Source: a virus. Taken from it: a stretch of DNA of 22,150 nt. Below are positions 1-22,150 of the stretch, piece after piece. Location of the stretch: positions 1 through 22,150 of IMG/VR virus record IMGVR_UViG_3300030102_001337; one strand, written 5' to 3'. Under the pieces are notes generated by a model. The model had not been told where the DNA came from and searched no databases. It was given only the letters and a program-made list of their open reading frames with translations. Both the position numbers and the translations under genes were made by a program. The stretch's first letter is position 1; each line of letters opens with the position of its first letter.

Positions 1-1
1 A

Positions 2-1381
2 GCAACTGATTCAACGCCTACTGTATTATTTTATCAATGTACGAACCACGCGTTAATGGGAAATACAGTAAATTTTGACACTAGAAATTTAACTGGTTTT
101 GATACAGCTGATTTAACAGAGGGAACTAATTTATATTATACAGATGCTAGATTTGACACAAGACTAGCAGCTAAAGATACAGACGACTTAACAGAGGGGT
201 CAAGTAATTTATATTTCTCAGATGAAAGGGCGCAAGATGCAGCTGCTTCAATGATTACTGGAGGCTCACATACAAACTTAACAGCAACTTATAACGATGG
301 GTCTAATACAATAGACTTAGCTGTAAGTGGTGGCGGTTCTGTTTCAGATGCTTTTAAAAATATTGCTGTAAGTGGTCAGTCAAATATAGTTGCTGATTCC
401 TCAACTGATACCCTAACATTAGCAGCTGGAGATAATATAACACTTACAACAAATGCCAGCACAGATACTGTAACAATAGCTTCAAGTGCTAGCGGCTCTG
501 GAACATTAACTATAGAACAGCAAACTTTTAGCGGAGATGGTTCAGACACTACTTTTACTTTAACTTCAACTTGTAATAACGAAAATAAATTACAAGTATA
601 TATAGACGGAGTTTATCAGTCAAAAAGTAATTTTTCTGTCAGCGGTACTACTTTAACTTTTTCAACTGCGCCAGCTGCTGGAACAAATAATATAGAAGTA
701 ATTCATTTAGAAGCTTTAGCTGGGACAGTACAAGTAGATACATTTACTGGAGATGGCTCAGACACTACTTTTGATTTAACAACTACTATAAGCTCAGAAA
801 ACAATACTCAAGTTTATTTAGACGGAGTCTACCAGTCTAAAGGGAACTATTCTATTTCTGGCACAACAATAACATTTAGTACAGCTCCAGCTAATAATGT
901 AGCTATCGAGGTAGTCCATTTATTACCCTCTGGAGATGTTTCTATAAATGCTATAGATAGTTCTGACGACGCTATTATTAGACTTTCAAGTACAAATGGA
1001 GCAACTGACGACGTTAAGCTGGTTGCTGGTAGTAACATAACAATAACGCCAAGCGGAGATGACATAACAATAGCTTCAAGTGTAAGTACAAGTTATTCAG
1101 TTTCTGTTATTTCTTCTAATACAACAGCAGTTGCTAATACACTTTATGTGTTAACAGCTAGTTTAACTTTAACTTTACCAGCCTCTCCGAGTGCTGGAGA
1201 TAGTATCAAAATATCAAATAGAAGCGGCACAGCTACTGCAACTGTAGCTAGAAATAGTGAAAAAATTATGGGTGCTACTTCAGATTTAACTTTAGATAAA
1301 TTAAACGCTGGTTTTGAAATGATTTATTCTGGTTCAGCTCAAGGATGGGTATTAATAGGAGTAGAGGGTACAAGTGCATAA
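2..1381 (+). CDS. Tail fibre protein with tandem repeats (5' end missing)
   Basis: Probable phage tail fibre, a host-contact structural protein. The reading frame is open with no stop from base 2, so the ATG at 56 is internal and the true start lies left of the window. Residue numbers here count from that ATG. Residues 16-60 hold two copies of a DLTEG..NLY..D.R motif common in marine phage fibres. Residues 160-218 and 232-289 are a tandem duplication of a beta-rich module (GDGSDTTF ... VY.DGVYQSK ... TFSTAPA ... IEV.HL). The C-terminal part (about 350-441) ends in GWVLIG, as in many fibre C-termini. Composition is rich in Ser, Thr, Gly and Asn with no membrane segment. The fibre role is inferred from these repeats and from the following fibre and chaperone genes; the receptor is unknown. 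Confidence 0.8.
   Translation, partial: ATDSTPTVLFYQCTNHALMGNTVNFDTRNLTGFDTADLTEGTNLYYTDARFDTRLAAKDTDDLTEGSSNLYFSDERAQDAAASMITGGSHTNLTATYNDGSNTIDLAVSGGGSVSDAFKNIAVSGQSNIVADSSTDTLTLAAGDNITLTTNASTDTVTIASSASGSGTLTIEQQTFSGDGSDTTFTLTSTCNNENKLQVYIDGVYQSKSNFSVSGTTLTFSTAPAAGTNNIEVIHLEALAGTVQVDTFTGDGSDTTFDLTTTISSENNTQVYLDGVYQSKGNYSISGTTITFSTAPANNVAIEVVHLLPSGDVSINAIDSSDDAIIRLSSTNGATDDVKLVAGSNITITPSGDDITIASSVSTSYSVSVISSNTTAVANTLYVLTASLTLTLPASPSAGDSIKISNRSGTATATVARNSEKIMGATSDLTLDKLNAGFEMIYSGSAQGWVLIGVEGTSA
533..709 (+). repeat. Fibre tandem repeat, copy 1
   Basis: First copy of an approximately 72-codon in-gene repeat encoding the GDGSDTTF...DGVYQSK...TFSTAPA module. It lies exactly 216 bases before copy 2. 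The first 30 or so bases are nearly identical at nucleotide level, which suggests a fairly recent duplication or gene conversion. Confidence 0.85.
749..922 (+). repeat. Fibre tandem repeat, copy 2
   Basis: Second copy of the approximately 72-codon module in the fibre gene. The encoded blocks GDGSDTTF, DGVYQSK and TFSTAPA recur in the same order as in copy 1. The intervening residues have diverged, and two residues are lost before IEVVHL. Confidence 0.85.
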
Positions 1382-1401
1382 TAATAATTAAATAAAAAAA
1401 T

Positions 1402-2370
1402 ATGGCAAATTTTTCAAGTTTTTTTCCGACAGCAGCAACTGGAGGCGGCGGTTTTACAAAAATGAATAAATATACAACTGCTAGAGGTTTAGGAGATGCT
1501 ACAAATAAAATTAGCTCTTTAAACAATAATAGCGGAACATTGGTAACTGATGGAAGCGCTGGAACTCCGTTTGATTTAATTTATGACCAACCAGCTCAAT
1601 CTATTGCTGCTGCTCCCTCAACTTATACTATAAACAATCTAAGATTTGATTCTTCAACTGCTTTAAATGTAGGTGCTGTAATACCAGCTAATTTTTTTGC
1701 TGGTGGTACTGTTAGATTTTCATATAGCGGAGTTAATAACATTAACTTGCAACGAGCTTCCTTAATTTCTTCTCATCCAGAGTTCACTTATGCTAATTCA
1801 AGTAGCTCTTTAGTTTTAAGCTATTCAACCAACCCAGATGGTGCTTTTTCAGCAAGTGCTAGAACAAACTTAGGAACTGGTGACACAGTACCTTTAACTT
1901 TACCGACTTCAATAACAGTAAATCCAGCTACTGACTTAGGTTTGTCTGATGGCGACAGTATTGGTTATATGTTAATAGGTGCTGGAAATTCAAATAATTC
2001 AAGCACAGAAAAAGGAGGCGCTGGAGGTAATATTTTGCAAGGCACTGCTATTATAAGTAATGCTTCAACAAATTTAACAATAACTCCAGCAGCAGTTACT
2101 GGAACTAACTCAGCTGGTGCAGCTAGTACAATAACTGGCGGCTTAACTTTAAGTAGCGCTGATGGTATGCCAGCTGGATGGGGTGCTTTTGGAACTTCAA
2201 CTAGAGCTGCTGCGGCTTGGAGTGGTATAAATGGCTATTCTTTAGGAGGTGGTCAGCATAACGAAGGGGGTGCTGGAGGTGTATTAGGTAATAACGGAGA
2301 TGGTTTTGGTTGGGGGTCTTATAACTCTGGCGTTAGAGCTAGCGATGGTGCAGTATTATTATATTATTAA
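1402..2370 (+). CDS. Glycine-rich tail fibre tip / adhesin-like protein
   Basis: A 322-residue probable virion surface protein. The N-terminus (MANFSSFFPTAATGGGGF) is followed by a Ser/Thr/Asn/Ala-rich middle with beta-strand-like stretches. From about residue 200 Gly and Ala become dense, with GGAGG-type runs near 207 and 288-296, and the protein ends SDGAVLLYY. A glycine-rich distal domain ending in DGAV plus aromatic residues is typical of phage fibre tips and adhesins, where Gly-rich loops carry receptor specificity. The start at 1402 is preceded by an A/T-rich stretch with no Shine-Dalgarno. It lies 20 bases after the preceding fibre gene and 11 bases before a fibre-chaperone-like gene. 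The adhesin role is inferred from composition and context, because no specific family could be assigned by eye. Confidence 0.65.
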   Translation: MANFSSFFPTAATGGGGFTKMNKYTTARGLGDATNKISSLNNNSGTLVTDGSAGTPFDLIYDQPAQSIAAAPSTYTINNLRFDSSTALNVGAVIPANFFAGGTVRFSYSGVNNINLQRASLISSHPEFTYANSSSSLVLSYSTNPDGAFSASARTNLGTGDTVPLTLPTSITVNPATDLGLSDGDSIGYMLIGAGNSNNSSTEKGGAGGNILQGTAIISNASTNLTITPAAVTGTNSAGAASTITGGLTLSSADGMPAGWGAFGTSTRAAAAWSGINGYSLGGGQHNEGGAGGVLGNNGDGFGWGSYNSGVRASDGAVLLYY

Positions 2371-2381
2371 AATTTTAGATT

Positions 2382-2738
2382 ATGTATTTTAGAATAAAAG
2401 AAAGATTTAATACAGACGGAGAAATAGAAGAATATGGAATAGCAGACGCTAAGCAATCTATAATAGATGGCTTTGAGGGAAACTGGGTTGAACAAGCTGA
2501 GGGTTTTGACGTTGGAGATTGGTATTCTGAAACAAATGGCTGGTCTAAACCTATTTTAACAACTCAAGAACAAGAAGCAAATGCTAGAGATTGGAGAGAC
2601 AAAGAATTAAAAAATACAGATTTTATAGTTCCTCTTAGTGACTATCCAAATAGAGACGCTTGGCTAACATACAGACAAACATTAAGAGACTGGACATCTA
2701 CTGATGACTTTCCAGAAACAAAACCGAGTAAACCATAA
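2382..2738 (+). CDS. Tail fibre assembly chaperone-like protein
   Basis: A 118-residue acidic protein. Its C-terminal half (about residues 66-115) reads ARDWRDKEL..TDF..PLSDYP.RDAWLTYRQTLRDW....DFPE.KP. This matches my recollection of the phage tail assembly chaperone family (Pfam Phage_tail_APC), whose hallmarks are R.WRd..L..tD followed by W..YRq.LRd and a final FP...P. The N-terminal half may adapt it to its client fibre. Such proteins help fold or attach neighbouring fibre proteins and are normally not in the virion. The natural client is the Gly-rich protein encoded 11 bases upstream. No Shine-Dalgarno is visible before the ATG. The family call is good; the client assignment is inferred. 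Confidence 0.75.
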   Translation: MYFRIKERFNTDGEIEEYGIADAKQSIIDGFEGNWVEQAEGFDVGDWYSETNGWSKPILTTQEQEANARDWRDKELKNTDFIVPLSDYPNRDAWLTYRQTLRDWTSTDDFPETKPSKP

Positions 2739-2743
2739 TTTCG

Positions 2744-2753
2744 TAAATTTGTA
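2744..2753 (+). promoter_or_regulatory. Bacteroidota-type -7 promoter element
   Basis: TAAATTTGTA fits the Bacteroidota primary-sigma -7 box TAnnTTTG, here extended by a pyrimidine and A. It is intergenic, 11 bases before the ATG at 2765, so transcription would start only a few bases before that gene. I could not find a convincing TTG -33 element at the usual spacing, so this is a candidate only. Confidence 0.45.
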
Positions 2754-2764
2754 AAAAATAAGAT

Positions 2765-3175
2765 ATGGCAATAACAAAAGTAACTGGAGACGTTTTAACA
2801 GATGACACTGTTAAGCATAATCATTTAGAGGCTAGATATACAGCTACTGGAAGCATAACGACTTATACTGGAGCGGTCTCAGTAGATTGGTCTAGTGCTA
2901 CAAATTTTGTTATGGGTTCAAGTTTGACTGGCGCTATTGAATTTGATTTCACAAACTATAAAACTGGACAAGTTTTGACCATTCATAATTTGACTGGGTC
3001 TCAAACTATAACGCTAGACTCAGACGCAGCTACAAGTGAGACATTTAATAAAATAGGCGGTAATGATTATGATGGCAGTTCTACAAATGTCTTAATGATT
3101 GAATGTATAGACGATGACGCTACTGCTGTATTTAATTATTCAATATTAACTTATACTTCAGATACTACTCCTTAA
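2765..3175 (+). CDS. Hypothetical fibre-region structural protein
   Basis: A 136-residue acidic, Thr/Ser/Asp-rich protein with no Cys pair, signal peptide or membrane segment. It begins MAITKVTGDVLTDDTV, resembling N-termini of marine phage fibre or collar proteins. Alternating hydrophobic patterns (residues 35-45, 58-65, 70-83 and 105-130) suggest an all-beta fold. I do not recognise a defined family. It is preceded by a candidate promoter and followed after one base by the next ORF, so it probably belongs to the fibre operon. A small structural or fibre-linker role is inferred from neighbours only. Confidence 0.55.
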   Translation: MAITKVTGDVLTDDTVKHNHLEARYTATGSITTYTGAVSVDWSSATNFVMGSSLTGAIEFDFTNYKTGQVLTIHNLTGSQTITLDSDAATSETFNKIGGNDYDGSSTNVLMIECIDDDATAVFNYSILTYTSDTTP

Positions 3176-3176
3176 T

Positions 3177-3626
3177 ATGAAAGCAATAGACATAAATGGT
3201 AATATAAAAACATTTTCAAGCGTTCCTAAGTCTTGGAATGGTAAAATAGGCTTACAATATGCAAGCGACACGGAACTAGAAAATTTAGGTTTTTTTAATG
3301 TATATGAGCCAGAAATAACAGCCAGCCAAGAATATGGAGCTATAGAATGGGATGCTGCTAACAATAGGTTTACTTATCCTATTGTAAATAAAACTTATAC
3401 AGAAACACTAGCGGAATTAAAAGAGCAAAAAATAAACACTTTAAAAGCAATATATAAAACTAAGCTAGCTGTAACAGATTGGTATATAATTAGAAGCTCT
3501 GAGGGTATTTCAGCACCTCAAGAAATTTTAGACTTAAGAGCTGGATTAAGAGCGGATTGTTCTACTAAAGAGTCTGAAATAAATTCTTTAAATAATAAAA
3601 GCGCTGTTATAGAGTATATTATATAA
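3177..3626 (+). CDS. Second fibre-assembly-like small protein
   Basis: A 149-residue protein. The N-terminal 80 residues are beta-rich (DINGNIKTF, NVYEPEI, GAIEWD). The C-terminal part (about 80-149) is predicted helical: L.ELKEQKINTLKAIY, then TDWYIIRSSEG, then P.EILDLRAGLR. The TDWY.IR...G...P..I...R..lR pattern recurs in C-terminal helical segments of phage fibre-assembly and tail proteins. It resembles the R..R.tDw...YR..LR segment of the protein encoded at 2382, though the sequences are clearly different. It lies one base after the upstream stop and five bases before the next fibre gene. The likely role is helper or connector for the fibre protein at 3632; this is inferred. Confidence 0.55.
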   Translation: MKAIDINGNIKTFSSVPKSWNGKIGLQYASDTELENLGFFNVYEPEITASQEYGAIEWDAANNRFTYPIVNKTYTETLAELKEQKINTLKAIYKTKLAVTDWYIIRSSEGISAPQEILDLRAGLRADCSTKESEINSLNNKSAVIEYII

Positions 3627-3631
3627 GTGAT

Positions 3632-4621
3632 ATGAAAAAAAGCTTATTACAAAGTGGAACTGTAAGTTCTACGACTGATTTTTTACAAATAGGAACTTAT
3701 ACTGGTGGTGGTTCAACTGATGTAAGCGTTTCGGGATTAGGATTTAGACCAGATTTGGTTGTACTTAGAAATTTAGATGCAACTTCTACTTTTTCTTATT
3801 GGATTGACGGAAATAAAAGAGGTCATTTTGTTGGTCAAGCTGGTAATGAATACCAATATACTCAAAACTTAACAAATTATATTACACACGATACTGATGG
3901 TTTTACAGTTACAACAAATTCTGGTGCAAGTGATTTAACAAATAAAAGTGGTGATGAATTTTTATACTATGCTTGGCTTTTAGATGGCAATTTAGGTGAT
4001 ATATCTGGTAGTGATACTGCTGGAGTTTATATTGGTAAATTTGGTGGCACTGGCGGAAGCGGTTCACAAACTTATAGCACTGGTCTAAGCAGTGTTACAT
4101 TTGAACATAAGTTTAATGGTTATAATTTCTATTTTAAAGATGGCACAAATCAAGACACTTTTCAAATGTCTAATTATTGGACACACGCCTCTCAAGGTTG
4201 GTCAGCAAATAATTCAAGTACTGGAATTGAAGCTCAAAGGTCAACTGCTTATGGGTATTATGGTGGTGGGGATGTCGATGGCGTTTCTAAAACTGATTAC
4301 TATAATGGTGGTAATAGTGGCTCTAGTAATCAAATTACAGTAGGGTTTTCCCCTAGGATTCTAATGGTAGTTAGAGACCCAGCTACTTCGACTACTTCCG
4401 TTGATAAGGTTTGGTGGTGGTCAACTGCTTTAGACACAGATACAGTAAAATATACTAGATATAGAAGCGCTGAATATTCTGGAGGTGTAGCTGGTAAAGT
4501 AACTTCACACGATAGCGGTTTCGGTGTAACTTTTACTGACACTGGTTTTTATTGGGACTCATCTAGCGAAAGCGCTACTAATGCCTCTGGCTCTAGATAT
4601 AGATATTGGGCTTTAGGATAA
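3632..4621 (+). CDS. Tail fibre protein with duplicated beta module
   Basis: A 329-residue Gly/Ser/Thr/Tyr-rich probable fibre. Residues 19-120 show a module with YTGGGS, then GLGFRPDLVVLRN, then THDTDGFTV and FLYYAWLLDG. This is typical of phage fibre domains that read YTGNG...GF.PD.V.IKN...DGF.V...YVAW. A diverged copy covers about 223-329: YYNGGNSGS, VGFSPRILMVVRD, TSHDSGFGVTF, and YRYWALG at the C-terminus. The middle (about 128-215) holds a less regular segment with KFGGTGGSG. No signal peptide or membrane segment is present. It is the last gene of the fibre block and is separated from the tail tube gene by a 57-base promoter-like gap. The fibre call is supported by the module; the ligand is unknown. 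Confidence 0.7.
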   Translation: MKKSLLQSGTVSSTTDFLQIGTYTGGGSTDVSVSGLGFRPDLVVLRNLDATSTFSYWIDGNKRGHFVGQAGNEYQYTQNLTNYITHDTDGFTVTTNSGASDLTNKSGDEFLYYAWLLDGNLGDISGSDTAGVYIGKFGGTGGSGSQTYSTGLSSVTFEHKFNGYNFYFKDGTNQDTFQMSNYWTHASQGWSANNSSTGIEAQRSTAYGYYGGGDVDGVSKTDYYNGGNSGSSNQITVGFSPRILMVVRDPATSTTSVDKVWWWSTALDTDTVKYTRYRSAEYSGGVAGKVTSHDSGFGVTFTDTGFYWDSSSESATNASGSRYRYWALG

Positions 4622-4648
4622 CATAAAAAAAATAACAAATAAAATAAC

Positions 4649-4658
4649 TATATTTGTA
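4649..4658 (+). promoter_or_regulatory. Bacteroidota-type -7 promoter element before tail tube gene
   Basis: TATATTTGTA matches TAnnTTTG plus pyrimidine-A in a 57-base A/T-rich intergenic gap, 20 bases before the ATG at 4679. The same gap holds AAGG ten bases before the start, one of the few Shine-Dalgarno-like sequences in the window. That would suit the strong expression needed for a major structural protein. No clear -33 box is visible. Confidence 0.5.
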
Positions 4659-4678
4659 TTAAATTTAAAAGGTAAAAA

Positions 4679-5110: not shown

Positions 5111-5128
5111 GAGTTTTAAACTAAAATT

Positions 5129-5857: not shown

Positions 5858-5859
5858 TT

Positions 5860-7947
5860 ATGGCAAATATTCTAGAAGTAATTTTAAAAGGGGACGCTAA
5901 ACACTTAAATAGCTCCCTAGGTAGAGCTAGCAGAAGTTTAAAAAGTTTTGGAAGTCAAGTTACTGACGTTGGTAAAAATTTATCTTTAAAATTATCAGCT
6001 CCTTTAGCTTTAGTGGGTACAAAAGCCTTGAGTTCAGCTATGAATTTTCAAAAGCTACAAACTCAATTAGATGTATTAACTGGAAGTGCTGAGGCTGGTG
6101 CTGACGCTTTCGCAAGACTTGTTAAATTTTCAGCTGGCACGCCTTTCCAATTAGACGAACTTGTAAAAGCTAATAATACATTAATGGGCTTTGGCGTTAG
6201 TGCCGAAGATGCTTTTCAACATTTACAATCTATAGGAGATATAGCAGCGGTTTCTGGTGGAGACTTGCAAGGTATATCTGTTGCTTTTGGTCAAGTAGCT
6301 GCGGCTGGTAGGCTTATGGGTCAAGACCTATTACAACTCATTAATAATGGAGTTCCTATTATTGATATGTTAAGTAAGTCTATGGGAGTTGCTAAGTCTG
6401 AAATTAAGGATATGGTTTCAGAGGGCGCTGTAACTTTTCCAGTGTTAATAGAAGCTTTTAGACAAGCTACAACTGAGGGCGGTAAATTTGAGGGCGGTAT
6501 GGGTAAACTGTCCCAAACTCTTGGAGGCGTTTTATCTACTCTTAAAGATAATTTAAATATTGCTTTTGCTGAACTAGGTAAGGAAATAATTAACGCTTTT
6601 GACCTTACTGCTAATATGCAAAAATTTATAGATTTTATAAAAGGCATAACAGAGCATTTTAGAAGCTTAGAACCGCAAACAAAAAAAATAGTTATAGCTA
6701 TTGGTGCTTTAGCGGTTGCATTACCTCCTTTATTAATTGTATTAGGTTCTATTATTAGCGCTGTAGGAACTTTAACAGCTGCTTTTGGAGCTTTAAATTT
6801 AGTTACTGGTGGAGTAGTCTTAGCAATAGGAGCTTTAGCAGCTGCACTAGCAGCAGTATCAAAACATAATTTTTTAACAGAGACTATAGAAGATTTAAAT
6901 GTAGAGCTAGAAGAAAATAAAAAATTATTAGGCGAAGTAAAAGAAAAAAACGAAAAAGGAGCAGCTGCTGTTTTAAAATTACATAAAGCAGAAAGAGAAC
7001 TTCTAAAGACAGAGCTTAAATTAAAAAAAGCACAACAAGACAAGGAGCAAGGTTTAGTAGCTTCGCTTTTAGGCATTGAGTCTGAAGAATATAAAAAGTT
7101 AGCTAAAGAAATAGCAAAAACAGAGCAAGAAATAATAGGCTATGATAATACTATAAAACTTTTAGAAGATTCTCTTAAAAATGTAGGTAATCAAGCTGAC
7201 AATACAAAAAATAAAATTACTCAAGTTAAAGACCCAATAAGAGATTTAGTAAAAGAGGTAAGTGCTTTGACTTTAACTAGCGAAGTTGGCGACTTTGATT
7301 TTACGAAAGGAGAGCGTTCTATTGCAGATATAGCTAGAGGCGCTCAAACTATACCTTTAGAATTAGATATAAAAGTTCCTAGTCCAGAAATAATAAACGA
7401 AAAGCTAAAAGCTTCGTTAGATACTTTAAAAGCTACAACGAAACAAACAGCTGCTGAAATTAGTATTGATTTTGGTAATATGGCTATGGGAGTAGCTGAC
7501 GCTTTAGGTAGTGCTTTAGTAAGTGGAGAAAATGTTTTTGCTACTATAGGAGGTATTATTTTAAATTCATTAGCAGATATTATGTTACAATTAGGAACAG
7601 CCGCAGTAGCCGCTGCAAATCTGTCAGCTACTTTTGCTACGCCAGCTGGATTAGTGACTGGTTTGATAGCAATAGGCTTAGCTGGTGCTTTAAAAGCTGC
7701 CGCAAGTCAACTTCAAAACGTGCAATCATTTGCAAAAGGGGGTATTGTTTCAGCGCCAACTCTAGGACTTATGGGCGAATATGCTGGAGCAAGAAGCAAT
7801 CCAGAAGTTATAGCGCCATTAGATAGATTAAAAGGTATGATAGGGCAAAGAGAGTCTTCTGTAAATGTAACTGGCGGTTTTAGATTAGAGGGTCAAGACT
7901 TAGTAGTAGCTTTGCAAAGAGCTGAAAGAAATCGTTCAAGACTATAA
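5860..7947 (+). CDS. Tape measure protein
   Basis: A 695-residue protein that sets tail length and is delivered with the DNA. Residues about 55-240 match the N-terminal tape-measure domain: SAGTPFQLDELVKANNTL, FGVSAEDAF, GDIAAVSGGDLQGIS, GQVAAAGRLMGQDL, then GVPIIDML and EGAVTF. Residues 275-335 are strongly hydrophobic Ala/Gly/Leu/Ile helices, probably two or three membrane-active segments. Residues 340-445 are Lys/Glu-rich coiled coil. A second hydrophobic stretch (about 540-615) precedes FAKGGIV, LGLMGEYAGARSNPEVIAPLDRL, a C-terminal motif seen in many tape measure proteins. At about 1.5 angstrom per residue the tail would be near 100 nm. The gene follows the chaperone pair, as expected. 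Very confident. Confidence 0.95.
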   Translation: MANILEVILKGDAKHLNSSLGRASRSLKSFGSQVTDVGKNLSLKLSAPLALVGTKALSSAMNFQKLQTQLDVLTGSAEAGADAFARLVKFSAGTPFQLDELVKANNTLMGFGVSAEDAFQHLQSIGDIAAVSGGDLQGISVAFGQVAAAGRLMGQDLLQLINNGVPIIDMLSKSMGVAKSEIKDMVSEGAVTFPVLIEAFRQATTEGGKFEGGMGKLSQTLGGVLSTLKDNLNIAFAELGKEIINAFDLTANMQKFIDFIKGITEHFRSLEPQTKKIVIAIGALAVALPPLLIVLGSIISAVGTLTAAFGALNLVTGGVVLAIGALAAALAAVSKHNFLTETIEDLNVELEENKKLLGEVKEKNEKGAAAVLKLHKAERELLKTELKLKKAQQDKEQGLVASLLGIESEEYKKLAKEIAKTEQEIIGYDNTIKLLEDSLKNVGNQADNTKNKITQVKDPIRDLVKEVSALTLTSEVGDFDFTKGERSIADIARGAQTIPLELDIKVPSPEIINEKLKASLDTLKATTKQTAAEISIDFGNMAMGVADALGSALVSGENVFATIGGIILNSLADIMLQLGTAAVAAANLSATFATPAGLVTGLIAIGLAGALKAAASQLQNVQSFAKGGIVSAPTLGLMGEYAGARSNPEVIAPLDRLKGMIGQRESSVNVTGGFRLEGQDLVVALQRAERNRSRL

Positions 7948-7950
7948 ATA

Positions 7951-9624: not shown

Positions 9625-9626
9625 TT

Positions 9627-11765: not shown

Positions 11766-11987
11766 ATGACAGAGAACATAAATAGAGTATTTAAAATGGA
11801 GCTTAAGCGTTTAGGTCTTAAGCGGTACGATGTAGCAAAAGAGTTGGGTATAACTTACCCAGCTCTTAAGGCTAAGGTAGACAATCCAGACAGATTGACT
11901 TATAGAGAATTAAAAAAACTAGCAGAGCTAGGAATTAACTTACAACTAAAATTATATGAAACCAGACTTAGCGAAGAAGATGTTTAA
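11766..11987 (+). CDS. Cro/CI-like helix-turn-helix protein
   Basis: A 73-residue protein. Residues about 20-58 (YDVAKELGITYPALKAKVDNPDRLTYRELKKLAELG) fit a Cro/CI (XRE-type) helix-turn-helix, with recognition helix near TYPALKAKV. There is no dimerisation or protease-cleavage domain, so a Cro-sized regulator rather than a CI repressor is likely. It sits in the early operon before the recombination genes. Its last 32 bases overlap the next ORF's ATG at 11956. It is a candidate to bind the A/T-rich control region 350 bases upstream; this is inferred. Confidence 0.75.
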   Translation: MTENINRVFKMELKRLGLKRYDVAKELGITYPALKAKVDNPDRLTYRELKKLAELGINLQLKLYETRLSEEDV

Positions 11988-12369
11988 CGTCTTTCATAAA
12001 GTTGAGGCGCTTAAAAAAGACAAATCAAACCCATTTTATAAAAGTTATTACACTGATATAAATTCAATACTTAAAGTAGTAAAACCTATTTTAAAATCGG
12101 AGAAACTTTTTTTAAGTCAGCCTATAATAAAAAACGAAGTTATAACAGTTATTATAGACTCCGACACTGGCGAAATATTTCCAGAACGTCCAGAGGGAAT
12201 AGTTTTAGAAACTTCAAAACCTCAAGAGCGAGGCTCTGAGATAACTTACTATAGACGTTATGGTTTACTTTCCTTATTAGGATTGGAAGCTGAAGACGAT
12301 GACGCTAACATAACTGTTAAGCGCCAAATAAATAAACCTATTAATAACCCTAATAAATTTGAATTATGA
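11956..12369 (+). CDS. ERF-family single-strand annealing protein
   Basis: A 137-residue recombinase that anneals complementary single strands in phage recombination and repair. Diagnostic segments are KDKSNPFYKSYYTDINSIL (about 21-39), VVKPILKSEKLFLSQP, then KPQERGSEITYYRRYGLLSLLGL (about 87-109) and EAEDDDAN. The Q..GS.iTY.rRY.l...LGL..EdDDa block is characteristic of the ERF superfamily. It is short for the family, whose members often have a longer C-terminal tail. The ATG at 11956 overlaps the upstream gene by 32 bases; ATG 11980 in the same frame is an alternative. It is followed with an ATGA overlap by an SSB-like gene, and a RecE-like exonuclease lies 1.2 kb downstream, completing a recombination set. 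Confidence 0.88.
   Translation: MKPDLAKKMFNVFHKVEALKKDKSNPFYKSYYTDINSILKVVKPILKSEKLFLSQPIIKNEVITVIIDSDTGEIFPERPEGIVLETSKPQERGSEITYYRRYGLLSLLGLEAEDDDANITVKRQINKPINNPNKFEL
12354..12361 (+). promoter_or_regulatory. Possible -7 element before SSB-like gene
   Basis: TAAATTTG matches TAnnTTTG inside the last codons of the ERF gene, four bases before the ATG at 12366. The gap to the start codon equals that of the element before the tape measure gene. It lacks the pyrimidine-A extension seen elsewhere and may be a chance match. Confidence 0.2.
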
Positions 12370-12670: not shown

Positions 12671-12674
12671 ATAT

Positions 12675-13376: not shown

Positions 13377-13385
13377 ATAATAGAT

Positions 13386-13631
13386 ATGGCAAACAAGAAA
13401 CAAAGAGTCTTAATAGACGAAATAGAAGAAACTAGTCCAGAGTTTTTAGAGGCTACTAGAATGTTTTTTAGGGGTAAATTGCACGACTTAGAGAAACAAT
13501 TAAAGAAGACTGAAGATAATTTAGTTATTACTCAAGCAGCTGCAAATTATCATAAGAAAAAAAAAGATTACTGGAAAAATAAGTATCACGTTTTAAATAA
13601 CAAACTCAAAGAAAATGGAAAAAACATTTGA
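13386..13631 (+). CDS. Hypothetical coiled-coil protein
   Basis: An 81-residue, Lys/Glu-rich, probably all-helical protein. Residues 20-75 have heptad-like hydrophobic spacing (FFRGKLHDLEKQLKKTEDNL, then NYHKKKKDYWKNKY), suggesting a coiled coil. No catalytic motif, Cys cluster or membrane segment. Its last 17 bases overlap the start of the RecE-like exonuclease gene, so it is translationally coupled to it and may be an accessory factor. No family recognised. Confidence 0.6.
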   Translation: MANKKQRVLIDEIEETSPEFLEATRMFFRGKLHDLEKQLKKTEDNLVITQAAANYHKKKKDYWKNKYHVLNNKLKENGKNI

Positions 13632-14373
13632 TTCTAATAAAGACTACCATTCCAGTAGTAATATTTCAGCCTCTGGATTAAAAACAATTTATAGCCAGTC
13701 GGTCAGTTACTTTTTAAATCAAAAGTATAACGAAACCGAAGCTATGAAATTTGGGACTGCGGTACATACTTTAATTTTAGAGGGACGTAATGAGTTTAAA
13801 AAGAATTATTACTTTATGCCTAAGCTTGATTTAAGAAAAAAAGCTAATAAAGAAATAAGAGACCAGCATTTAAAAATTGCAAAAAACAAAATATTATTAG
13901 ACAGCGAAGTAGGTCGAAACCTTTTTACCATTGTAAAAAACCTAGAGCAAGATAAACTGGCGCTATATTATTGTAATGGTATTGTAGAGCAGTCTCATTA
14001 TGGTACTTTTGAGGGCGTTAAAATAAGAGTGCGCCCAGACTGCCATTCAGATACTTGGATTTCTGACGTTAAAACTTGTAGAGATATAAGTTTAAAATCT
14101 TTTAGAAGTGAAGTTAGAAATCGAAACTATGACTTACAAGCTACTTTTTATTGTGATGCTTTAGGATATGACCCTAGAAAATTTAGGTTTGTAGCTATAA
14201 GAAACCAGTACCCTTTTGACGTTGCTGTTTATTCTTTAAACGATGACCAAATTGAAGCTGGACGTTATAAATATTTACACGCTCTTAGGCTTTGGAAACA
14301 TTACAAAGATACTGGCGTAGCTCTTGGGATTTATAGTGATAATAAAAACGAAGATGGTTCTATAGTATTATGA
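13615..14373 (+). CDS. RecE/RecB-like PD-(D/E)XK exonuclease
   Basis: A 252-residue nuclease expected to degrade one strand of duplex ends and feed the ERF annealing protein. The N-terminal segment SSSNISASGLKTIYSQSVSYF is the usual start of this phage exonuclease family. Active-site motifs in order: FGTAVH (His51), Glu125, RPD (Asp142), DVK (Asp151 and Lys153), and QATFY (Gln175 and Tyr179), which is the QxxxY motif of RecB-like nucleases. All the metal-binding positions are present, so it should be active. It overlaps the coiled-coil gene before it and shares ATGA with the DnaA-domain nuclease gene after it. Confidence 0.85.
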   Translation: MEKTFDSNKDYHSSSNISASGLKTIYSQSVSYFLNQKYNETEAMKFGTAVHTLILEGRNEFKKNYYFMPKLDLRKKANKEIRDQHLKIAKNKILLDSEVGRNLFTIVKNLEQDKLALYYCNGIVEQSHYGTFEGVKIRVRPDCHSDTWISDVKTCRDISLKSFRSEVRNRNYDLQATFYCDALGYDPRKFRFVAIRNQYPFDVAVYSLNDDQIEAGRYKYLHALRLWKHYKDTGVALGIYSDNKNEDGSIVL

Positions 14374-15282: not shown

Positions 15283-15285
15283 AAT

Positions 15286-15954: not shown

Positions 15955-16391
15955 GTTTTAAATCTACAGCTAAGAGAACTAAAGAAATAGAGTTAAGAGT
16001 TTTAAACGCTTTAAACTGCTATGGTAAATTTTATAAGTCAGAAGAAGAATTTTCTACTTATGATTTATATGGAGAAACTGGAGGCGATAAAACACTAATC
16101 GAAATAAAAGAGCGTAGTCAAATCTATAACTGGTGGAATATAGAAAAAGCTAAAATAACTAGACTCTTAGATTTAAGAGACAAAGCAAAATATAAGATAA
16201 GACTTTACTTGGTTATGGTCGTTAAAGATATGGCTTACTTATATAATATTGACGATGTAAAAAACTATCAAGTAGAAAAAAAAATGATGAATAACTACAC
16301 AAATGAGAGTTTTAAAAATGGAGTTAAGAAATCCATAAAAGTAGTATATTCGTTTCCCTTTACAATCCACAAACTAGAACTAAAAATATGA
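15951..16391 (+). CDS. PD-(D/E)XK-like nuclease or resolvase candidate
   Basis: A 146-residue protein. Residues 10-60 read TKEIELRVLNAL, then YDLYGETGGDKTLIEIKERSQIYNWWNIEKAK. Glu13, Asp38 and Glu51-x-Lys53 follow the order of a PD-(D/E)XK active site, in a strand-turn-strand setting like small phage Holliday-junction resolvases and restriction-type nucleases. The next helices (ITRLLDLRDKAKYKIRLYLVMV) complete such a core. The C-terminal 45 residues are basic. It shares ATGA overlaps with both the initiator-like gene before it and the primase-helicase gene after it. The fold assignment is by motif alone. Confidence 0.55.
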   Translation: MSFKSTAKRTKEIELRVLNALNCYGKFYKSEEEFSTYDLYGETGGDKTLIEIKERSQIYNWWNIEKAKITRLLDLRDKAKYKIRLYLVMVVKDMAYLYNIDDVKNYQVEKKMMNNYTNESFKNGVKKSIKVVYSFPFTIHKLELKI

Positions 16392-18061
16392 TACAAGACT
16401 TTATAGCGTTAGGTATTAAAATAAAATCTAATGCAAACAACCAAAAACTAAGATGCCCAAAATGTTCCGAAACAAGAAAAAATAAACAAGACCGCTGTTT
16501 AAGTATAAACTTAGAACAAGGTTTATATAATTGTCATCACTGCGGCTGGGGTGGGAATGTAAAATTTAAACCAAAAAAAGAATATGTTAAGCCAGTTATA
16601 GTTAAATCTAAATTAGGAGATAGGACAGTAAGCTGGTTTAATAAAAGAGGTATTTCAGAAGCTACTATAGTTAACTGGAAAATAACAGAAAGCCAAGAGT
16701 ATTTTCCTCAGACACAAAAAAACCGCAAAGCTATTAACTTTAATTATTACAGAGACAAGGAACTAATAAACGTAAAGTACAGAGATGCAGAGAAAAATTT
16801 TAAGCTAGTATCTGGAGCTGAATTAATTTTTTACGGACTTGACAATATTAAAGACAGCACTAGAGCTTACATAGTAGAGGGCGAAATGGACGCTTTAAGT
16901 TTATTTGAGGCTGGAGTTTATAACGTTGTATCTGTCCCTAATGGAGCTTCTAAAGGTAACCAGCGCCTAGACTATTTAGATAATTGTTATAGCTACTTTG
17001 AAGATAAAAAAGAAATAGTTTTATGTACTGATAACGATGACGCTGGACTAAACTTAAGAAATGAGTTAGCTAGAAGACTTGGAAAGTACCGCTGTAAGTA
17101 TGTAGAATTTAGCCAATACAAGGACGCTAACGAAGTTTTAATAGAAAAAGGTGCTGAGGTACTAAGGACTATTTTAAAAGGCGCTAAAACGTTTCCTTTA
17201 GACGGAGTCATAAATATTAATGATATTTGGGAAAATGTTTTACTATACAATGAGAGAGGAATTAAAAACTATTCAGTCGGTCTTAGCGACTCTAATAATT
17301 ATTTTAATATTGCTTTTGGCGAGTGGTCTGTTGTTACTGGAATTCCCAATAGTGGCAAGTCTGATGTTTTTGACCAGATTGCTGTCAACTTAGCTCTTAG
17401 TCAAGGTTTTAGAACTGCTTTTTTCGCTCCAGAGTCATTTCCTTACGAGGGTCATATTAAAAGGATTGCTAATAAACTCAATAAAAAAAACTGTCAAAAT
17501 GAAGACCTCAACAATACAAAAAATTTTATTGAAGACCATTTTTATTTTATTAAGATTGACTTAGAAAACTTAACTCTTAAGTCTATACTAGAAAAGTTTA
17601 AAGAGCTTGTATTTCAGAAAGGCGTAAATATTTTAGTAATTGACCCTTGGAATATGTTAGACCATTCAGCTCAAAAAGATTTTAGCTATATAGGCGCTAT
17701 GCTTTCTCAAATAACTCAATTTGTACAGCAAACTAATACCCATTTATTTTTAATAGCACACCCTAGAAAAATGGAAATTAACGGAGATGCTTATAAAGTG
17801 CCAACTCCTTATGATATTTCTGGCTCTAGTGATTTTTTTAATAAAGCTTACAACTGCTTAACAGTATATAGAAAGCTTGGAGAGATTACTAAGTTTGGCA
17901 CTGATGCAGTAGAGGTTCACGTTCAAAAAGTAAAACGTAAAGAGAATGGACAGCAAGGCTCTTTTATGATAGCTCCAGACTTTAAAAATGGTGGCTACTA
18001 TTGTGCTATTGACAAAGAAAAACAAAGACTAACAAGTATTAACGATAAACTACCTTTTTAA
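16388..18061 (+). CDS. Bifunctional primase-helicase (T7 gp4-like)
   Basis: A 557-residue replication protein. It has a zinc-ribbon (Cys23-x2-Cys26 and Cys49-x2-Cys52, in CPKC and CHHC), then a Toprim domain with VEGEMDAL (Glu164) and CTDNDDAG (Asp215, Asp217). A RecA-type hexameric helicase follows, with Walker A GIPNSGKS (318-325), Walker B ILVIDPWN (Asp419) and LIAHPRK (about 455-461). This is the domain order of T7 gp4 and Twinkle, which prime lagging strands and unwind DNA at the fork. All key residues are present, so both activities are expected. It ends with KLPF. The next gene begins on the base after its stop. Confidence 0.93.
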   Translation: MIQDFIALGIKIKSNANNQKLRCPKCSETRKNKQDRCLSINLEQGLYNCHHCGWGGNVKFKPKKEYVKPVIVKSKLGDRTVSWFNKRGISEATIVNWKITESQEYFPQTQKNRKAINFNYYRDKELINVKYRDAEKNFKLVSGAELIFYGLDNIKDSTRAYIVEGEMDALSLFEAGVYNVVSVPNGASKGNQRLDYLDNCYSYFEDKKEIVLCTDNDDAGLNLRNELARRLGKYRCKYVEFSQYKDANEVLIEKGAEVLRTILKGAKTFPLDGVININDIWENVLLYNERGIKNYSVGLSDSNNYFNIAFGEWSVVTGIPNSGKSDVFDQIAVNLALSQGFRTAFFAPESFPYEGHIKRIANKLNKKNCQNEDLNNTKNFIEDHFYFIKIDLENLTLKSILEKFKELVFQKGVNILVIDPWNMLDHSAQKDFSYIGAMLSQITQFVQQTNTHLFLIAHPRKMEINGDAYKVPTPYDISGSSDFFNKAYNCLTVYRKLGEITKFGTDAVEVHVQKVKRKENGQQGSFMIAPDFKNGGYYCAIDKEKQRLTSINDKLPF

Positions 18062-18268
18062 ATGACAGAACAGCATTACCAAGCCTTTAAATGGGCTACT
18101 GACAATAACATAAGAATTTACCCAAAAGTTAGAGGTAAGAAATTTATTTTAATATTAGAAAGAGATGGCAAGACTGAGACCTCTGGAAAGGAATACAACA
18201 AAAAAGACTATCAAGACGTAATCTGGGAATTTTACCTAACTTTGTACAATAAATTTAGGAATGACTGA
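18062..18268 (+). CDS. Hypothetical small basic protein
   Basis: A 68-residue basic protein starting directly after the primase-helicase stop (TAAATG). It reads as a small alpha/beta protein: a helical N-terminus (EQHYQAFKWATDNN), a strand pair (IYPKVRGKKFILILERDGK) and a C-terminal helix (DYQDVIWEFYLTLYNKF). No family recognised. Its stop overlaps the 44-residue ORF that follows, so both are probably translated from the primase-helicase message. Confidence 0.6.
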   Translation: MTEQHYQAFKWATDNNIRIYPKVRGKKFILILERDGKTETSGKEYNKKDYQDVIWEFYLTLYNKFRND

Positions 18269-18395
18269 AATACAAATTTATCCTTTAATGGGCTTTTGTG
18301 TAGGTATAGAATACTTAGACGCTTTTAAGGATGAAACAATGAAATCAATAGACATTTATTTAGGTATTTTTGGCGTTTCTTTTAGATGGAACTAA
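18261..18395 (+). CDS. 44-residue small protein between helicase and terminase
   Basis: A short frame overlapping the preceding stop by eight bases and ending in TAATG, which also provides the start of the terminase small subunit gene. It reads MTEIQIYPLMGFCVGIEYLD and ends IYLGIFGVSFRWN. Its pattern of two hydrophobic strands separated by an acidic helix and its position as an exact link in the overlap chain support a real gene. Small proteins ending in a similar IYLG...F.W segment occur in other flavobacterial phages, from memory. Function unknown. Confidence 0.55.
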   Translation: MTEIQIYPLMGFCVGIEYLDAFKDETMKSIDIYLGIFGVSFRWN

Positions 18396-18751
18396 TGGCA
18401 TACGACCCAAAAGAATTAGAAAAAAAAGCACTTATAGCAATAGAAAAACATAAGTTAATGTTTGTTGAGCATATAGTGGCTTTTTTACCTTGCTCTAAAA
18501 CTACTTTTTACGATTTAAAACTGAACGATTCGAACGCTATAAAAAAAGCAGTTGAAGAAATGCGAGTTTCAAAAAAAACTAAAATGCTTTCTAACTGGAT
18601 AAATTCAGAAACTCCTAGCTTACAGATTGCAGCTATGAAAATGATTAGCGAGGAACACGAAGCTCATAGGCTTAACGGAACAAGACAAGAAATAAAACAC
18701 GAGGGCGGTATTAAGTCAACTCTTATTGAATGGAAGCCAGCCAAAAAGTAG
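18395..18751 (+). CDS. Terminase small subunit-like protein
   Basis: A 118-residue protein from ATG 18395, which shares TAATG with the previous stop; an in-frame ATG nine bases earlier (18386) is an alternative. Residues 5-30 (PKELEKKALIAIEKHKLMFVEHIVAFLPCSKTTFYDL) form a helix-turn-helix region, followed by KAVEEMRVSKKTKMLSNW and SLQIAAMKMISEEHE. This layout matches terminase small subunits of Bacteroidota phages, which bind the packaging site and assemble as a ring. Its position directly upstream of TerL, with a 22-base overlap, supports it. Confidence 0.8.
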   Translation: MAYDPKELEKKALIAIEKHKLMFVEHIVAFLPCSKTTFYDLKLNDSNAIKKAVEEMRVSKKTKMLSNWINSETPSLQIAAMKMISEEHEAHRLNGTRQEIKHEGGIKSTLIEWKPAKK

Positions 18752-19914
18752 AACAGCTTTGCAATAGACAATTTTACGACCTTATTGACTCAGAGGCTAG
18801 ATATTTTGTTAGCCAAGGTGGCACTCGTTCTGGTAAGACCTACGCTATTTGTCAATACTTGATTTATTTGCTTACAGTTAGAGAAGACCCTATAGTTATA
18901 GATGTAATTAGGAAAACGCTGCCAGCTTTAAAAGCTTCTATTATGCGAGACTTTTTCTCTATAGCTGAGTCTACTGGAGTCTATTTTGATGGCGTACATA
19001 ATAAAGCAGAAAATACTTTTCAATATGGAAAGCACTTAGTTAGATTTTTATCAATAGACCAGCCGCAAAAGATAAGAGGGTCTAAAAGAAACATAGCAGT
19101 TCTCAATGAGGGAAACGAGCTAGACAAAGAAGACCTTGTACAAGTAGCTTTTAGATGTAGTGAAAAAATAATAATAGACTTTAATCCGTCAGACCCTATA
19201 CACTGGATTTACGAAGATATAATTCCTAGAGACGATTGCGAGACTATTATAACAACCTATAAGGATAATGAATTTCTAGCTCCAGAGATAGTAAAAGAAA
19301 TTGAAAGGATGCGAGAAAAAGACCCAGACTACTGGCGAGTTTATGGAGAGGGTCAAAGAGCTGTATATTCAGCAAGACAGATATTTAACAACTGGCACTT
19401 TATACCCTATAACGATTTCCCAGAGTTTGACCTAGAGAGTGAAGCGGTTATAGGCTTAGATTTTGGATTTTCATCAGACCCAGCTGCGGCTTGTTTAGTT
19501 TTTAAAAAACAAAATAAACTATATGTTCACGAGATACTATATAAAACTGGTATGACTAACCAAGACTTAGCTACATTCTTTAAAGATAATAACTACGATA
19601 GGACGCTTACTTTCTATGATAGTGCTGAGCCAAAGTCTGGAGAAGAGTTACGCAGAATGGGTATCTTTGCAAAAGCAGCGATAAAAGGTCAAGGGTCTAT
19701 AAACGCTGGTATAAGTTTATTAAAAGAATTTGACGTTTACGTTTCTAAGGAGTCTAAGAATTTCGCTAAAGAATATTCTGGCTACTATTGGGAACAATTA
19801 AAAGACGGAACTATCATAAATAAACCCAAAGACCGCCTTAATCATTTAATGGATAGTTTAAGATATTGCACCTATTCGCAGTATTCTAGGCGCTCTGAAT
19901 TTTTTGTAATATAA
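18730..19914 (+). CDS. terL: Terminase large subunit
   Basis: A 394-residue PBSX-type packaging ATPase and nuclease. Walker A is GGTRSGKT (30-37). The Walker B region is IAVLNEGNEL, with Asn126-Glu127 in place of the usual Asp-Glu. Next comes IIDFNPSDP (148-155), typical of the coupling motif. The nuclease domain follows: GLDFGF (Asp244), FYDSAEP (Asp297) and HLMDSLRY (Asp375), the three metal-binding positions of an RNase H-like fold. It cuts concatemeric DNA and pumps it into the prohead. It overlaps the small subunit gene and precedes the portal gene by 27 bases. Length is slightly short for the family but complete. Confidence 0.95.
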   Translation: MEASQKVEQLCNRQFYDLIDSEARYFVSQGGTRSGKTYAICQYLIYLLTVREDPIVIDVIRKTLPALKASIMRDFFSIAESTGVYFDGVHNKAENTFQYGKHLVRFLSIDQPQKIRGSKRNIAVLNEGNELDKEDLVQVAFRCSEKIIIDFNPSDPIHWIYEDIIPRDDCETIITTYKDNEFLAPEIVKEIERMREKDPDYWRVYGEGQRAVYSARQIFNNWHFIPYNDFPEFDLESEAVIGLDFGFSSDPAAACLVFKKQNKLYVHEILYKTGMTNQDLATFFKDNNYDRTLTFYDSAEPKSGEELRRMGIFAKAAIKGQGSINAGISLLKEFDVYVSKESKNFAKEYSGYYWEQLKDGTIINKPKDRLNHLMDSLRYCTYSQYSRRSEFFVI

Positions 19915-19918
19915 TTAG

Positions 19919-19928
19919 TATTTTTGTA
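19919..19928 (+). promoter_or_regulatory. Bacteroidota-type -7 promoter element before portal
   Basis: TATTTTTGTA matches TAnnTTTG plus pyrimidine-A, 13 bases before the ATG at 19942. It lies within an inverted repeat (TATTTTT then AAAAATA, 19919-19934), which may be a binding site for a regulator. No good -33 box is seen at normal spacing. Confidence 0.45.
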
Positions 19929-19941
19929 AAAATATATTTTA

Positions 19942-22150
19942 ATGGCTTCGATATTAGATAGGTTAAAGAACTTAGTAACCAAAAACAGTCAACAAACAAA
20001 CGCAGCTTTTAACAGAGCTATATATAATTTTTTAGGAGAAACCTTAATAACTTCAGAGGATAACGATGACAGCTATATTAATAAAGGCTATAGATTTAAT
20101 TCTACTGTTTATTCTATTATTAATCTAATAACAAAAGCAGCCTCGACAGTACCTTTTCAAGTATATGAAGTTCAAAACTCTAACGAATTAAAAAAATACA
20201 AAGCGCTTACTTCTGGTAGCTTCGTAAATACTACAAACCATAGAACTCAAATAACTTTAAAAAACGCTCTTGTAGAATTAGAAGACACTGAATTACACGA
20301 ATTACTAGAGCGCCCTAATCCAGCTCAATCTTATGCTAGCTTTATTTCTGAAATAATAGCCTTTGGTAAACTAACTGGAAACCGCTATATATATGGTATA
20401 GCTCCAGAGAATGGAGTTAATGCTGGTAAGTATGGAGAGCTTTACGTTTTACCTAGTCAGACTATAGAAATACATTCTGGCGGTATTATGAAACCAGTGG
20501 ACTATTATACAATGGAATATAACGGAACTTATAGAATGCTAGCAGAGGACGTTTGCCATATTAAAGACTATAATCCTTTGGCAGACGGAACTGGTGCTAA
20601 TCTTTACGGAATGAGTCCATTAAAAGCTGGTCTTAGGTCAATGGACGCTAATAACGAGGCGCTTACTACTGGTGTTAGATATTTACAAAACCAAACTGCG
20701 AGAGGTGTATTGATGTCTGAGGAGGGAGACCTCAACGAAGTACAAGCTAGACAACTTAAAGAGAAATTTAAAAAGCAGTACCAAGGTTCTAACAATGCTG
20801 GGGACGTAATCATTACTCCTAAAAAACTAAGCTGGGTTAACTTTGGACTTAATGCAGCTGACCTTTCTTTAATAGAGCAGTACAACACAACAATAAAAGA
20901 CCTTTGTAACGTTTACAATGTTCCAGCGGTATTACTTAATAACGTTGAGTCAGCTACTTATAACAATGTAAAAGAAGCTCGTAAAATGCTTTACACTAAT
21001 GCAGTAATACCAGAGCTTCTTAAAATCAGAGACGAGCTTAATAGATGGCTAGCGCCTAAGTTTGGGGAGAAACTATTTATAGATTTTGACACTTCAGTAA
21101 TACCAGAACTGCAAGAAGAAACAGAAAAAATAGTAGACCAGATGGCTAAGAGCTGGTGGCTTACTCCTAATGAAAAGCGTATGGCTATGAGTTACGGAAA
21201 GGATGAGGAAAATACTGAAATGGATGACTATTATGTCCCAGCTAACTTACTTCCTATAGGTAATTCAGATATGCCAGATATGACTCCAGACCCAGTTAAA
21301 GAAGACACTACTGAAAAAAGATTAGTAGCTGGTATGAACGACGTTTATACTACAATAGCAGAAGCAAGAGCTAGAGCTAGTGAATTGTCTAATGGAACTA
21401 ATAACGATTACCACGAACATATATTCGATGGCTTTACAGTTTATATGCCTTTTGAAACTCACGAGGAATATGAAGCAGCAAAAGATAATAAGTTAGATGA
21501 ATATTATGGCGAAATGGATGCAGACGCTTTTAACTATGACTTCGAGAGAGACTCTAGTTATTACGATGAAGATTCTGAATATGATGATGACGAAAATACA
21601 GAGTCTGAAGATTTAGAGATTATACAGAAAGCGCCAAGCATATCAGCAAGAATGGAAACAACTTTAAGAAACAAAGTAAAAGACCATAACGAAAAATACG
21701 GAGACGACCCAGCTAAAAGAGCTACTTATTCTATGCTAGCTAGGAGTTTTGTTAGAGGCGTTGGAGCTTATAGAACTAACCCTAGTTCTGTTAGACCTAA
21801 TGTTAGTAATGAGCAGCAGTGGGCTTTAGGTAGAGTTAATGGTTTACTATATGCGCTTAGAACTGGTAAATTCAGACGTAAGCCTTATGACACTGACCTA
21901 CTACCAGAGGCTCATAACCTCAGCTCTAAAAAAACAAAAGCGGAAACCTATGACAATTATCCACAAGGCGCAACTAATAACGCTAAACGTATGTTAGAAT
22001 GGAGAGAGAAATATGGTCGCAGCGTAGTACAAGGAGGCACTCCAGTTGGATGGCGTAGAGCTAACCAGTTAGCAAATAGAGAGGCGCTTAGTCTTTCTAC
22101 TGTTAGACGTATTAACAGCTTTTTAGCTAGGCATAAAGAAAACGCTAAAA
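19942..22150 (+). CDS. HK97-type portal protein fused to extra C-terminal domains (3' end missing)
   Basis: An open frame of 736 codons with no stop, continuing beyond the window. Residues 1 to about 430 are an HK97-family portal: NSTVYSIINLITKAASTVPF, LLERPNPAQSYASF, GNRYIY, YGMSPLKAGL, IEQYNTTIKDLCNVYNVP, then a helical stretch and YYVPANLLPIG. Portals form the dodecameric DNA gate. Beyond this lie a YHEHIFDGFTVYMPFETHEE segment, an acidic linker (about 517-560), and two basic domains. Domain A (571-659) has RGVGAYRTNPSSVRP, QWALGRVNGLLYALRTGKF and DTDLLPEAH; domain B (674 on) has AKRMLEWREKYGR, GGTPVGWRRANQLANRE and LSTVRRINSFLARH. I recall such domains in capsid-associated proteins of unrelated phages, but I cannot give them a name. 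Not in the ordinary ORF list because the frame runs off the edge. Confidence 0.85.
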   Translation, partial: MASILDRLKNLVTKNSQQTNAAFNRAIYNFLGETLITSEDNDDSYINKGYRFNSTVYSIINLITKAASTVPFQVYEVQNSNELKKYKALTSGSFVNTTNHRTQITLKNALVELEDTELHELLERPNPAQSYASFISEIIAFGKLTGNRYIYGIAPENGVNAGKYGELYVLPSQTIEIHSGGIMKPVDYYTMEYNGTYRMLAEDVCHIKDYNPLADGTGANLYGMSPLKAGLRSMDANNEALTTGVRYLQNQTARGVLMSEEGDLNEVQARQLKEKFKKQYQGSNNAGDVIITPKKLSWVNFGLNAADLSLIEQYNTTIKDLCNVYNVPAVLLNNVESATYNNVKEARKMLYTNAVIPELLKIRDELNRWLAPKFGEKLFIDFDTSVIPELQEETEKIVDQMAKSWWLTPNEKRMAMSYGKDEENTEMDDYYVPANLLPIGNSDMPDMTPDPVKEDTTEKRLVAGMNDVYTTIAEARARASELSNGTNNDYHEHIFDGFTVYMPFETHEEYEAAKDNKLDEYYGEMDADAFNYDFERDSSYYDEDSEYDDDENTESEDLEIIQKAPSISARMETTLRNKVKDHNEKYGDDPAKRATYSMLARSFVRGVGAYRTNPSSVRPNVSNEQQWALGRVNGLLYALRTGKFRRKPYDTDLLPEAHNLSSKKTKAETYDNYPQGATNNAKRMLEWREKYGRSVVQGGTPVGWRRANQLANREALSLSTVRRINSFLARHKENAK

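What the first reader, a model, noticed from the sequence alone, without database searches (positions are those of the whole stretch)
1..22150. Apparent complete absence of GATC and CATG (also GGCC and CCGG)
Reading the whole plus strand twice, once from every 'GAT' and once from every 'ATC', I found no GATC. Reading from every 'CAT' and every 'ATG', I found no CATG. I also saw no GGCC and no CCGG. All four are palindromes, so neither strand has them. At about one third GC, a random sequence this long should hold several tens each of GATC and CATG and a dozen or so each of the others. Other four-base palindromes such as CTAG, AGCT, GTAC and TGCA are common, so this is not just composition. The likely cause is long-term selection against restriction by host systems that cut these sites. 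Manual counting over 22 kb can miss a site.
Basis: partly seen in the sequence, partly recalled or inferred. Interest (0 to 1): 0.7.

Follow-up and report, generated by a model that had tools for sequence, protein, structure and literature searches.

The report
Marine phage missing many restriction sites
This ocean virus of bacteria has purged its genome of at least seven four-letter and two five-letter DNA words, apparently to escape host enzymes that cut DNA at those words, and its relatives show that the forbidden vocabulary is swapped quickly.

Summary
In detail: GATC, CATG, GGCC and CCGG occur 0 times in 22,150 bp. A shuffle that keeps protein sequence and codon usage expects 42, 26, 9 and 8. 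CVGG/CCBG is almost wholly forbidden, with CTGG/CCAG over-used in its place.

The window is a fragment of a marine tailed phage, probably of Flavobacteriia. Eighty terminase relatives mostly lack sets of words of their own. Sets change between close relatives: GATC 8 to 0 at 96% DNA identity; GGCC 44 to 0 one way and CTTC 19 to 0 the other way in one pair at 86%. Losses are almost all synonymous and hit varied positions. Control palindromes GTAC and TGCA are never eliminated.

Best explanation: selection by sequence-specific host DNA cutting, mainly restriction-modification, gained and lost quickly. The kind is known. New are the number of words, the asymmetric words (a 2018 survey found non-orthodox sites not systematically avoided) and the fast turnover. 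Host and enzymes are unidentified.

The parts
1..22150 (.). Whole phage fragment with no GATC, CATG, GGCC, CCGG, CAGG/CCTG, ACCGT/ACGGT or ACGGC/GCCGT on either strand
49..52 (.). Only CGCG in the window (expected about 21)
2263..2267 (+). Only GAAGG/CCTTC in the window (expected 17-26)
3732..3735 (+). Only CGGG/CCCG in the window (expected 13-15)
56..4621 (+). Tail-side module (six ORFs), which holds almost all residual forbidden sites; in relatives G001, G002, G003 and G006 the matching side of the genome holds nearly all CAGG sites
5860..7947 (+). Tail tape measure protein
   Evidence: PHROG match 2e-46
11956..12369 (+). Erf-like single-strand annealing protein
   Evidence: PHROG match 6e-30
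13615..14373 (+). Exonuclease VIII-like protein
   Evidence: PHROG match 2.2e-58
16388..18061 (+). Primase/helicase; region 16378-22150 is the best conserved and was used for site-by-site comparison
   Evidence: PHROG match 1.5e-87; alignments
18062..18385 (.). Slot that holds a C5 methyltransferase gene in relative G004; no methyltransferase here
18730..19914 (+). Terminase large subunit, used to find and place the 80 relatives
19942..22149 (+). Portal protein, open at the window end
   Evidence: PF04860 4.7e-57

Best explanation
The window is part of a lytic (inferred) marine tailed phage whose genome has been cleared, mostly by synonymous changes, of the words at which host defences cut unmodified DNA: GATC, CATG, GGCC, CGCG, CAGG/CCTG with CCGG and CCCG (together CVGG/CCBG), CCTTC and ACGGY. 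Each word most likely stands for one restriction-modification system, Type II palindromic or Type IIS/IIG/III asymmetric, in the range of hosts the lineage met. When hosts carrying a system are common, phages with fewer sites win until none are left. When such hosts fade, sites drift back or come in with exchanged modules. Shown: absence beyond codon constraint, lineage-specific sets, loss of orthologous sites by synonymous changes, turnover between close relatives, no methyltransferase of the four families tested in the window. Inferred: that the agents are R-M enzymes, the serial dynamics, and the identity of the host.
For: Codon-preserving null. No relative's ACCGT, CCTTC, GATC or CATG site is kept in the window, while control words are mostly kept at 30-80%; single-base losses are nearly all synonymous (for G004 ACCGT 9 syn to 0 nonsyn; G002 CATG 11 to 1; G005 GATC 14 to 1) and fall at several positions of the word. 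Different clades lack different sets; GTAC and TGCA are never eliminated in 80 records. Close pairs differ: L027/L014 GATC 8 to 0 at 95.9% identity with 86% of tetranucleotides otherwise kept; L065/L071 reciprocal GGCC and CTTC. CCTTC is the HpyAV site, ACGGC the BceAI site, GATC/CATG/GGCC/CCGG/CGCG are classical Type II sites (general knowledge). Other phages of Flavobacteriia lack some of the same words: Tenacibaculum phage JQ GATC, GGCC, CCGG; phage vB_RanS_PJN03 GATC, CATG, ACGT; Flavobacterium phage 11b GGCC, CCGG. No C5, N6/N4, Dam or D12 methyltransferase in the window.
Against: No host or cognate enzyme was identified. I found no enzyme for the bare four-base CAGG/CCTG, CCCG/CGGG or CTTC in the literature searched. 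A large survey found non-orthodox (Type I, IIG, III) sites not systematically avoided. The record is a fragment of a genome of about 32 kb; relatives G004, G010, G013 and G015 carry methyltransferases, so the missing part could hold one.
Confidence: 0.82

Rival explanations
1. The phage avoids sites of its own (or a co-infecting phage's) nucleases, which it uses to destroy host or competitor DNA, rather than sites of host restriction enzymes.
For: The window encodes a VRR-NUC domain protein (14370-15035) and a 146-aa protein without family match (15951-16391) in which I see a nuclease-like motif by eye; some phages do degrade host DNA.
Against: At least eight to nine unrelated words are missing, far more than candidate nucleases. 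Word sets change between genomes at 86-96% identity, and sets are shared in part with unrelated phages of Flavobacteriia.
Confidence: 0.05
2. The agents are other sequence-specific DNA-targeting defences (phosphorothioate Dnd/Ssp systems, BREX or DISARM type), not classical restriction-modification.
For: From memory: phosphorothioate systems use GATC, GGCC and GAAC type words, and BREX uses asymmetric words. Asymmetric words here are unusual for classical Type II avoidance.
Against: Several missing words are exactly classical Type II or IIS sites (CATG, CCGG, CGCG, CCTTC), and BREX words known to me are six bases long.
Confidence: 0.1
3. Chance, base composition, codon bias or an assembly artefact.
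For: AT-rich genome, so GC-rich words are expected to be few; CCGG has a low Markov expectation.
Against: Codon-preserving null; equally GC-rich GCGC is normal (42 against 39) and CCAG is over-used; relatives from many metagenome records with different sets; orthologous synonymous replacements.
Confidence: 0.01

Closest known systems
Restriction-site avoidance in dsDNA phages (survey of Rusinov et al. 2018, PMC6286503)
   Same: Near-complete loss of short Type II sites (elimination, observed/expected below 0.1) in a DNA phage, attributed to host R-M pressure
   Different: That survey found elimination in only 7.5% of cases and no systematic avoidance of Type I, IIG or III sites. Here at least six words pass the same cut at once in the window, several of them asymmetric.
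GATC-poor phage T7
   Same: Strong loss of one tetranucleotide palindrome: GATC 6 against 143
GANTC-poor pelagiphages (PMC9516812)
   Same: Marine phages in which closely related groups differ in depletion of one methylation motif
   Different: One motif with partial depletion; here many motifs with complete loss and reciprocal swaps
Cellulophaga baltica siphoviruses phi17:1, phi12:1, phi18:1
   Same: Nearest known portal proteins (35-36% identity over 58% of the query); similar order of terminase and portal
   Different: phi17:1 has no eliminated tetranucleotide and carries an annotated methylase; nucleotide similarity to known phages is nil by megablast

Membership tests
Restriction-site avoidance | Site count below 10% of expectation with expectation of about 15 or more | tested here: met
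   GATC 0/23, CATG 0/30, CAGG 0/76, CGCG 1/21, GGCC 0/15, CCCG 1/15; CCGG 0/6 is below the 15 limit
Restriction-site avoidance | Depletion not explained by protein sequence and codon usage | tested here: met
   Codon-shuffle null
Restriction-site avoidance | Missing words are recognition sites of known orthodox Type II enzymes | tested here: inconclusive
   True for GATC, CATG, GGCC, CCGG, CGCG (general knowledge), and for CCTTC and ACGGC as Type IIS; no enzyme found for bare CAGG/CCTG, CCCG/CGGG or ACGGT
Restriction-site avoidance | Host encodes cognate R-M systems | not testable with these tools
   Host unknown; one short MAG contig is the only relative in prokaryote genomes
Restriction-site avoidance | Non-temperate dsDNA phage | tested here: inconclusive
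   dsDNA phage genes; no prophage relative except one MAG contig; an integrase was not looked for in the missing part
Phage protected by its own methyltransferase | Phage encodes a DNA methyltransferase | tested here: not met
   No PF00145, PF01555, PF05869 or PF02086 match in the 22-kb window; about 10 kb of the genome is missing, and G004, G010, G013 and G015 have one

The most novel reading that the evidence does not exclude
This phage family is a sequence record of short-motif DNA-targeting defences in uncultured marine bacteria, including undescribed four-base asymmetric or degenerate specificities (CVGG/CCBG, CTTC/GAAG, ACGGY), with phages losing whole sets of sites within a few percent of divergence and regaining them when the pressure lifts.
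Probability: 0.35. Interest if true: 0.75.

Novelty: new variant of a known kind. Interest (0 to 1): 0.58.

Why it matters
It gives a natural, replicated record of phage escape from restriction: 80 related sequences with different forbidden words, some pairs very close. It runs against the view that asymmetric, non-orthodox sites are not avoided, and it could turn phage genomes into a read-out of the cutting specificities of marine hosts that cannot be cultured.

Tried and rejected
Orientation-dependent (Type III-like) tolerance of CAGG: the strand bias in the tail modules (17:2 in G001) matches composition (13:3), so rejected. CSSG as one motif (CCCG, CCGG, CGCG): fits clades E and F, but the window also bans CAGG, so CVGG plus CGCG fits it better; left open. 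ACNGT as the motif behind ACCGT: rejected, because ACAGT is present 32 times; ACGGY fits. GGTGA (HphI site, from memory): 3 against 25 by codon shuffle but 3 against 8 by Markov, so depleted only and not listed as eliminated. Host through prophage search: one short MAG contig only. Megablast against known phages: no match. Literature search for a CCTG/CAGG enzyme gave only the longer Type III motif CCTGA. Literature searches for multi-word avoidance in flavobacterial phages found nothing on the point.

Full report
Observation. Counting on the 22,150-bp window gives GATC 0, CATG 0, GGCC 0, CCGG 0 and CGCG 1. A scan of all 3- to 6-mers on both strands shows that the strongest missing word is the asymmetric CAGG/CCTG, 0 against 75.5, followed by CATG, GATC, CGCG, GGCC and CCCG/CGGG; among 5-mers CCTTC (1 against 17) and ACCGT (0 against 12). 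A null that shuffles synonymous codons across all genes, keeping proteins and codon usage, expects GATC 42, CATG 26, CAGG 78, CCTTC 26, ACCGT 17, CCCG 13, GGCC 9, CGCG 8 and CCGG 8, against 0, 0, 0, 1, 0, 1, 0, 0 and 0 in the coding sequence; ACGGC (0 against 9) is added by a second scan. GTAC is only mildly low; AGCT, CTAG and GCGC are normal or high. CCAG/CTGG is over-used (212 against 122). This follows from the ban on the other members of CNGG/CCNG: 220 CTGG against 0 CAGG, 0 CCGG and 1 CGGG.

What the window is. G000 is one IMG/VR virus record of 22,150 bp, with tail genes, tape measure, Erf, ParB-like protein, exonuclease VIII-like protein, replication initiation, primase/helicase, terminase and portal. 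Longer relatives are about 32 kb. No near match exists among sequenced phages. TerL is closest to Bacteroides phages (36%), the primase to a mix led by phages of Flavobacteriia, and the portal to Cellulophaga baltica phages (35.6%). A host in marine Flavobacteriia is likely but not shown. Only one relative turned up among 84,980 prokaryote genomes, on a 6.9-kb MAG contig, which fits a lytic life style (inference).

Relatives. The terminase relatives mostly lack sets of words of their own. The window's nearest kin L002, L003, L004, L008 and L081 share GATC, CATG and GGCC at zero. L005-L007 hold some CATG. L009-L013 (88-89% TerL identity) have about 80-100% of expected GATC and two thirds of expected CATG but still lack GGCC and nearly all CAGG. 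L014-L038 lack CATG, GGCC, CGCG and CTAG but have normal CCGG. L062-L065 and L075 lack CTTC/GAAG (0 against 194 pooled) and have normal GATC and GGCC. L080 lacks GATC, GGCC, CAGG, CCAG and CTCC. On the TerL tree the states need 2 to 7 changes for most words, whereas GTAC and TGCA are never eliminated in 80 records. Contigs are of unequal length and partly near-copies, so these are counts, not probabilities.

Site-level evidence. In alignments to relatives at 76-83% DNA identity, no orthologous ACCGT (9-19 per relative), CCTTC (8-19), CATG (15 in G002, 13 in G005) or GATC (28 in G005) site is kept in the window, while control words are mostly kept at 30-80%. Single-base losses are nearly all synonymous and, for GATC, CATG and ACCGT, fall at different positions of the word; this speaks for selection and against one mutational chemistry. 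CCTTC losses are mostly GAAGG to GAGGG. In other pairs the swap is stark: L027 to L014, 95.9% identity, GATC 8 to 0 with 86% of tetranucleotides otherwise kept; L065 and L071, 86% identity, GGCC 44 to 0 one way and CTTC 19 to 0 the other. Because pairs share branches, they are not independent tests.

Mosaic evidence. In G001, G002, G003 and G006 the CAGG sites sit almost only in the tail-side module (3-7 sites outside it in 21-29 kb), while GATC is zero and CATG zero or one there too. The window's own residual sites of CGCG, GAAGG and CGGG (49, 2263, 3732) also lie in its first 4 kb. Host-range modules therefore seem to be exchanged among phages that share some but not all forbidden words (inference). 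G004, which has the window's four-base set over 32 kb, has only two CCTG, and both lie inside a C5 methyltransferase gene in the slot after the primase; G010 has an N6/N4 methyltransferase starting just after its primase. The window has none of the four methyltransferase families tested.

Mechanism. The best explanation is selection by several sequence-specific host nucleases. Known sites fit part of the list: CCTTC is HpyAV, ACGGC is BceAI, CCTGA is a Type III motif, and GATC, CATG, GGCC, CCGG and CGCG are classical Type II sites (general knowledge). Unrelated phages of Flavobacteriia lack some of the same words, while Cellulophaga phage phi17:1 and Bacteroides phage BK735P2 lack none. A survey of prokaryotic viruses found elimination in 7.5% of cases and no systematic avoidance of Type I, IIG or III sites; this family departs from that. 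That enzymes with these specificities occur in the hosts is not shown.

Verdict. New variant of a known kind.

Noticed in passing
window 14370-15035: One ORF carries a DnaA C-terminal helix-turn-helix (PF08299, 5e-13) joined to a VRR-NUC nuclease domain (PF08774, 6e-6), an unusual pairing in a phage.
   Followed up: no
L090:842-1492 (G004) and G010:8946-9560; window slot 18062-18385: The gene slot after the primase holds a C5 methyltransferase in G004 and an N6/N4 methyltransferase in G010, and none in the window; the two CCTG sites of G004 are inside its methyltransferase gene.
   Followed up: partly
L062-L065, L075; G012: CTTC/GAAG, normally one of the commonest words in AT-rich genes, is completely absent (0 against 194 pooled; 0 against 82 in G012), as are CCTGA and CCTGC in the pooled loci.
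   Followed up: partly
L040-L060, L078; G010: CTAG (1 against 375 pooled) and CATCC/GGATG (13 against 236 pooled; 0 against 39 in G010) are nearly absent in this low-GC clade.
   Followed up: no
G015:15282-16394 (L107, L108): An N6/N4 methyltransferase match is split in two stretches with a TAA inside each, possibly a broken or frameshifted gene.
   Followed up: no
L104: The only relative among prokaryote genomes is a 6.9-kb contig in a Rhodobiaceae MAG; no eliminated tetranucleotide at this length; likely a misbinned phage contig.
   Followed up: no
window 1879, 3950, 3995: GGTGA/TCACC is low by the codon-shuffle null (3 against 25), and all three sites lie in the tail-side module; it is normal in close relatives.
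   Followed up: partly
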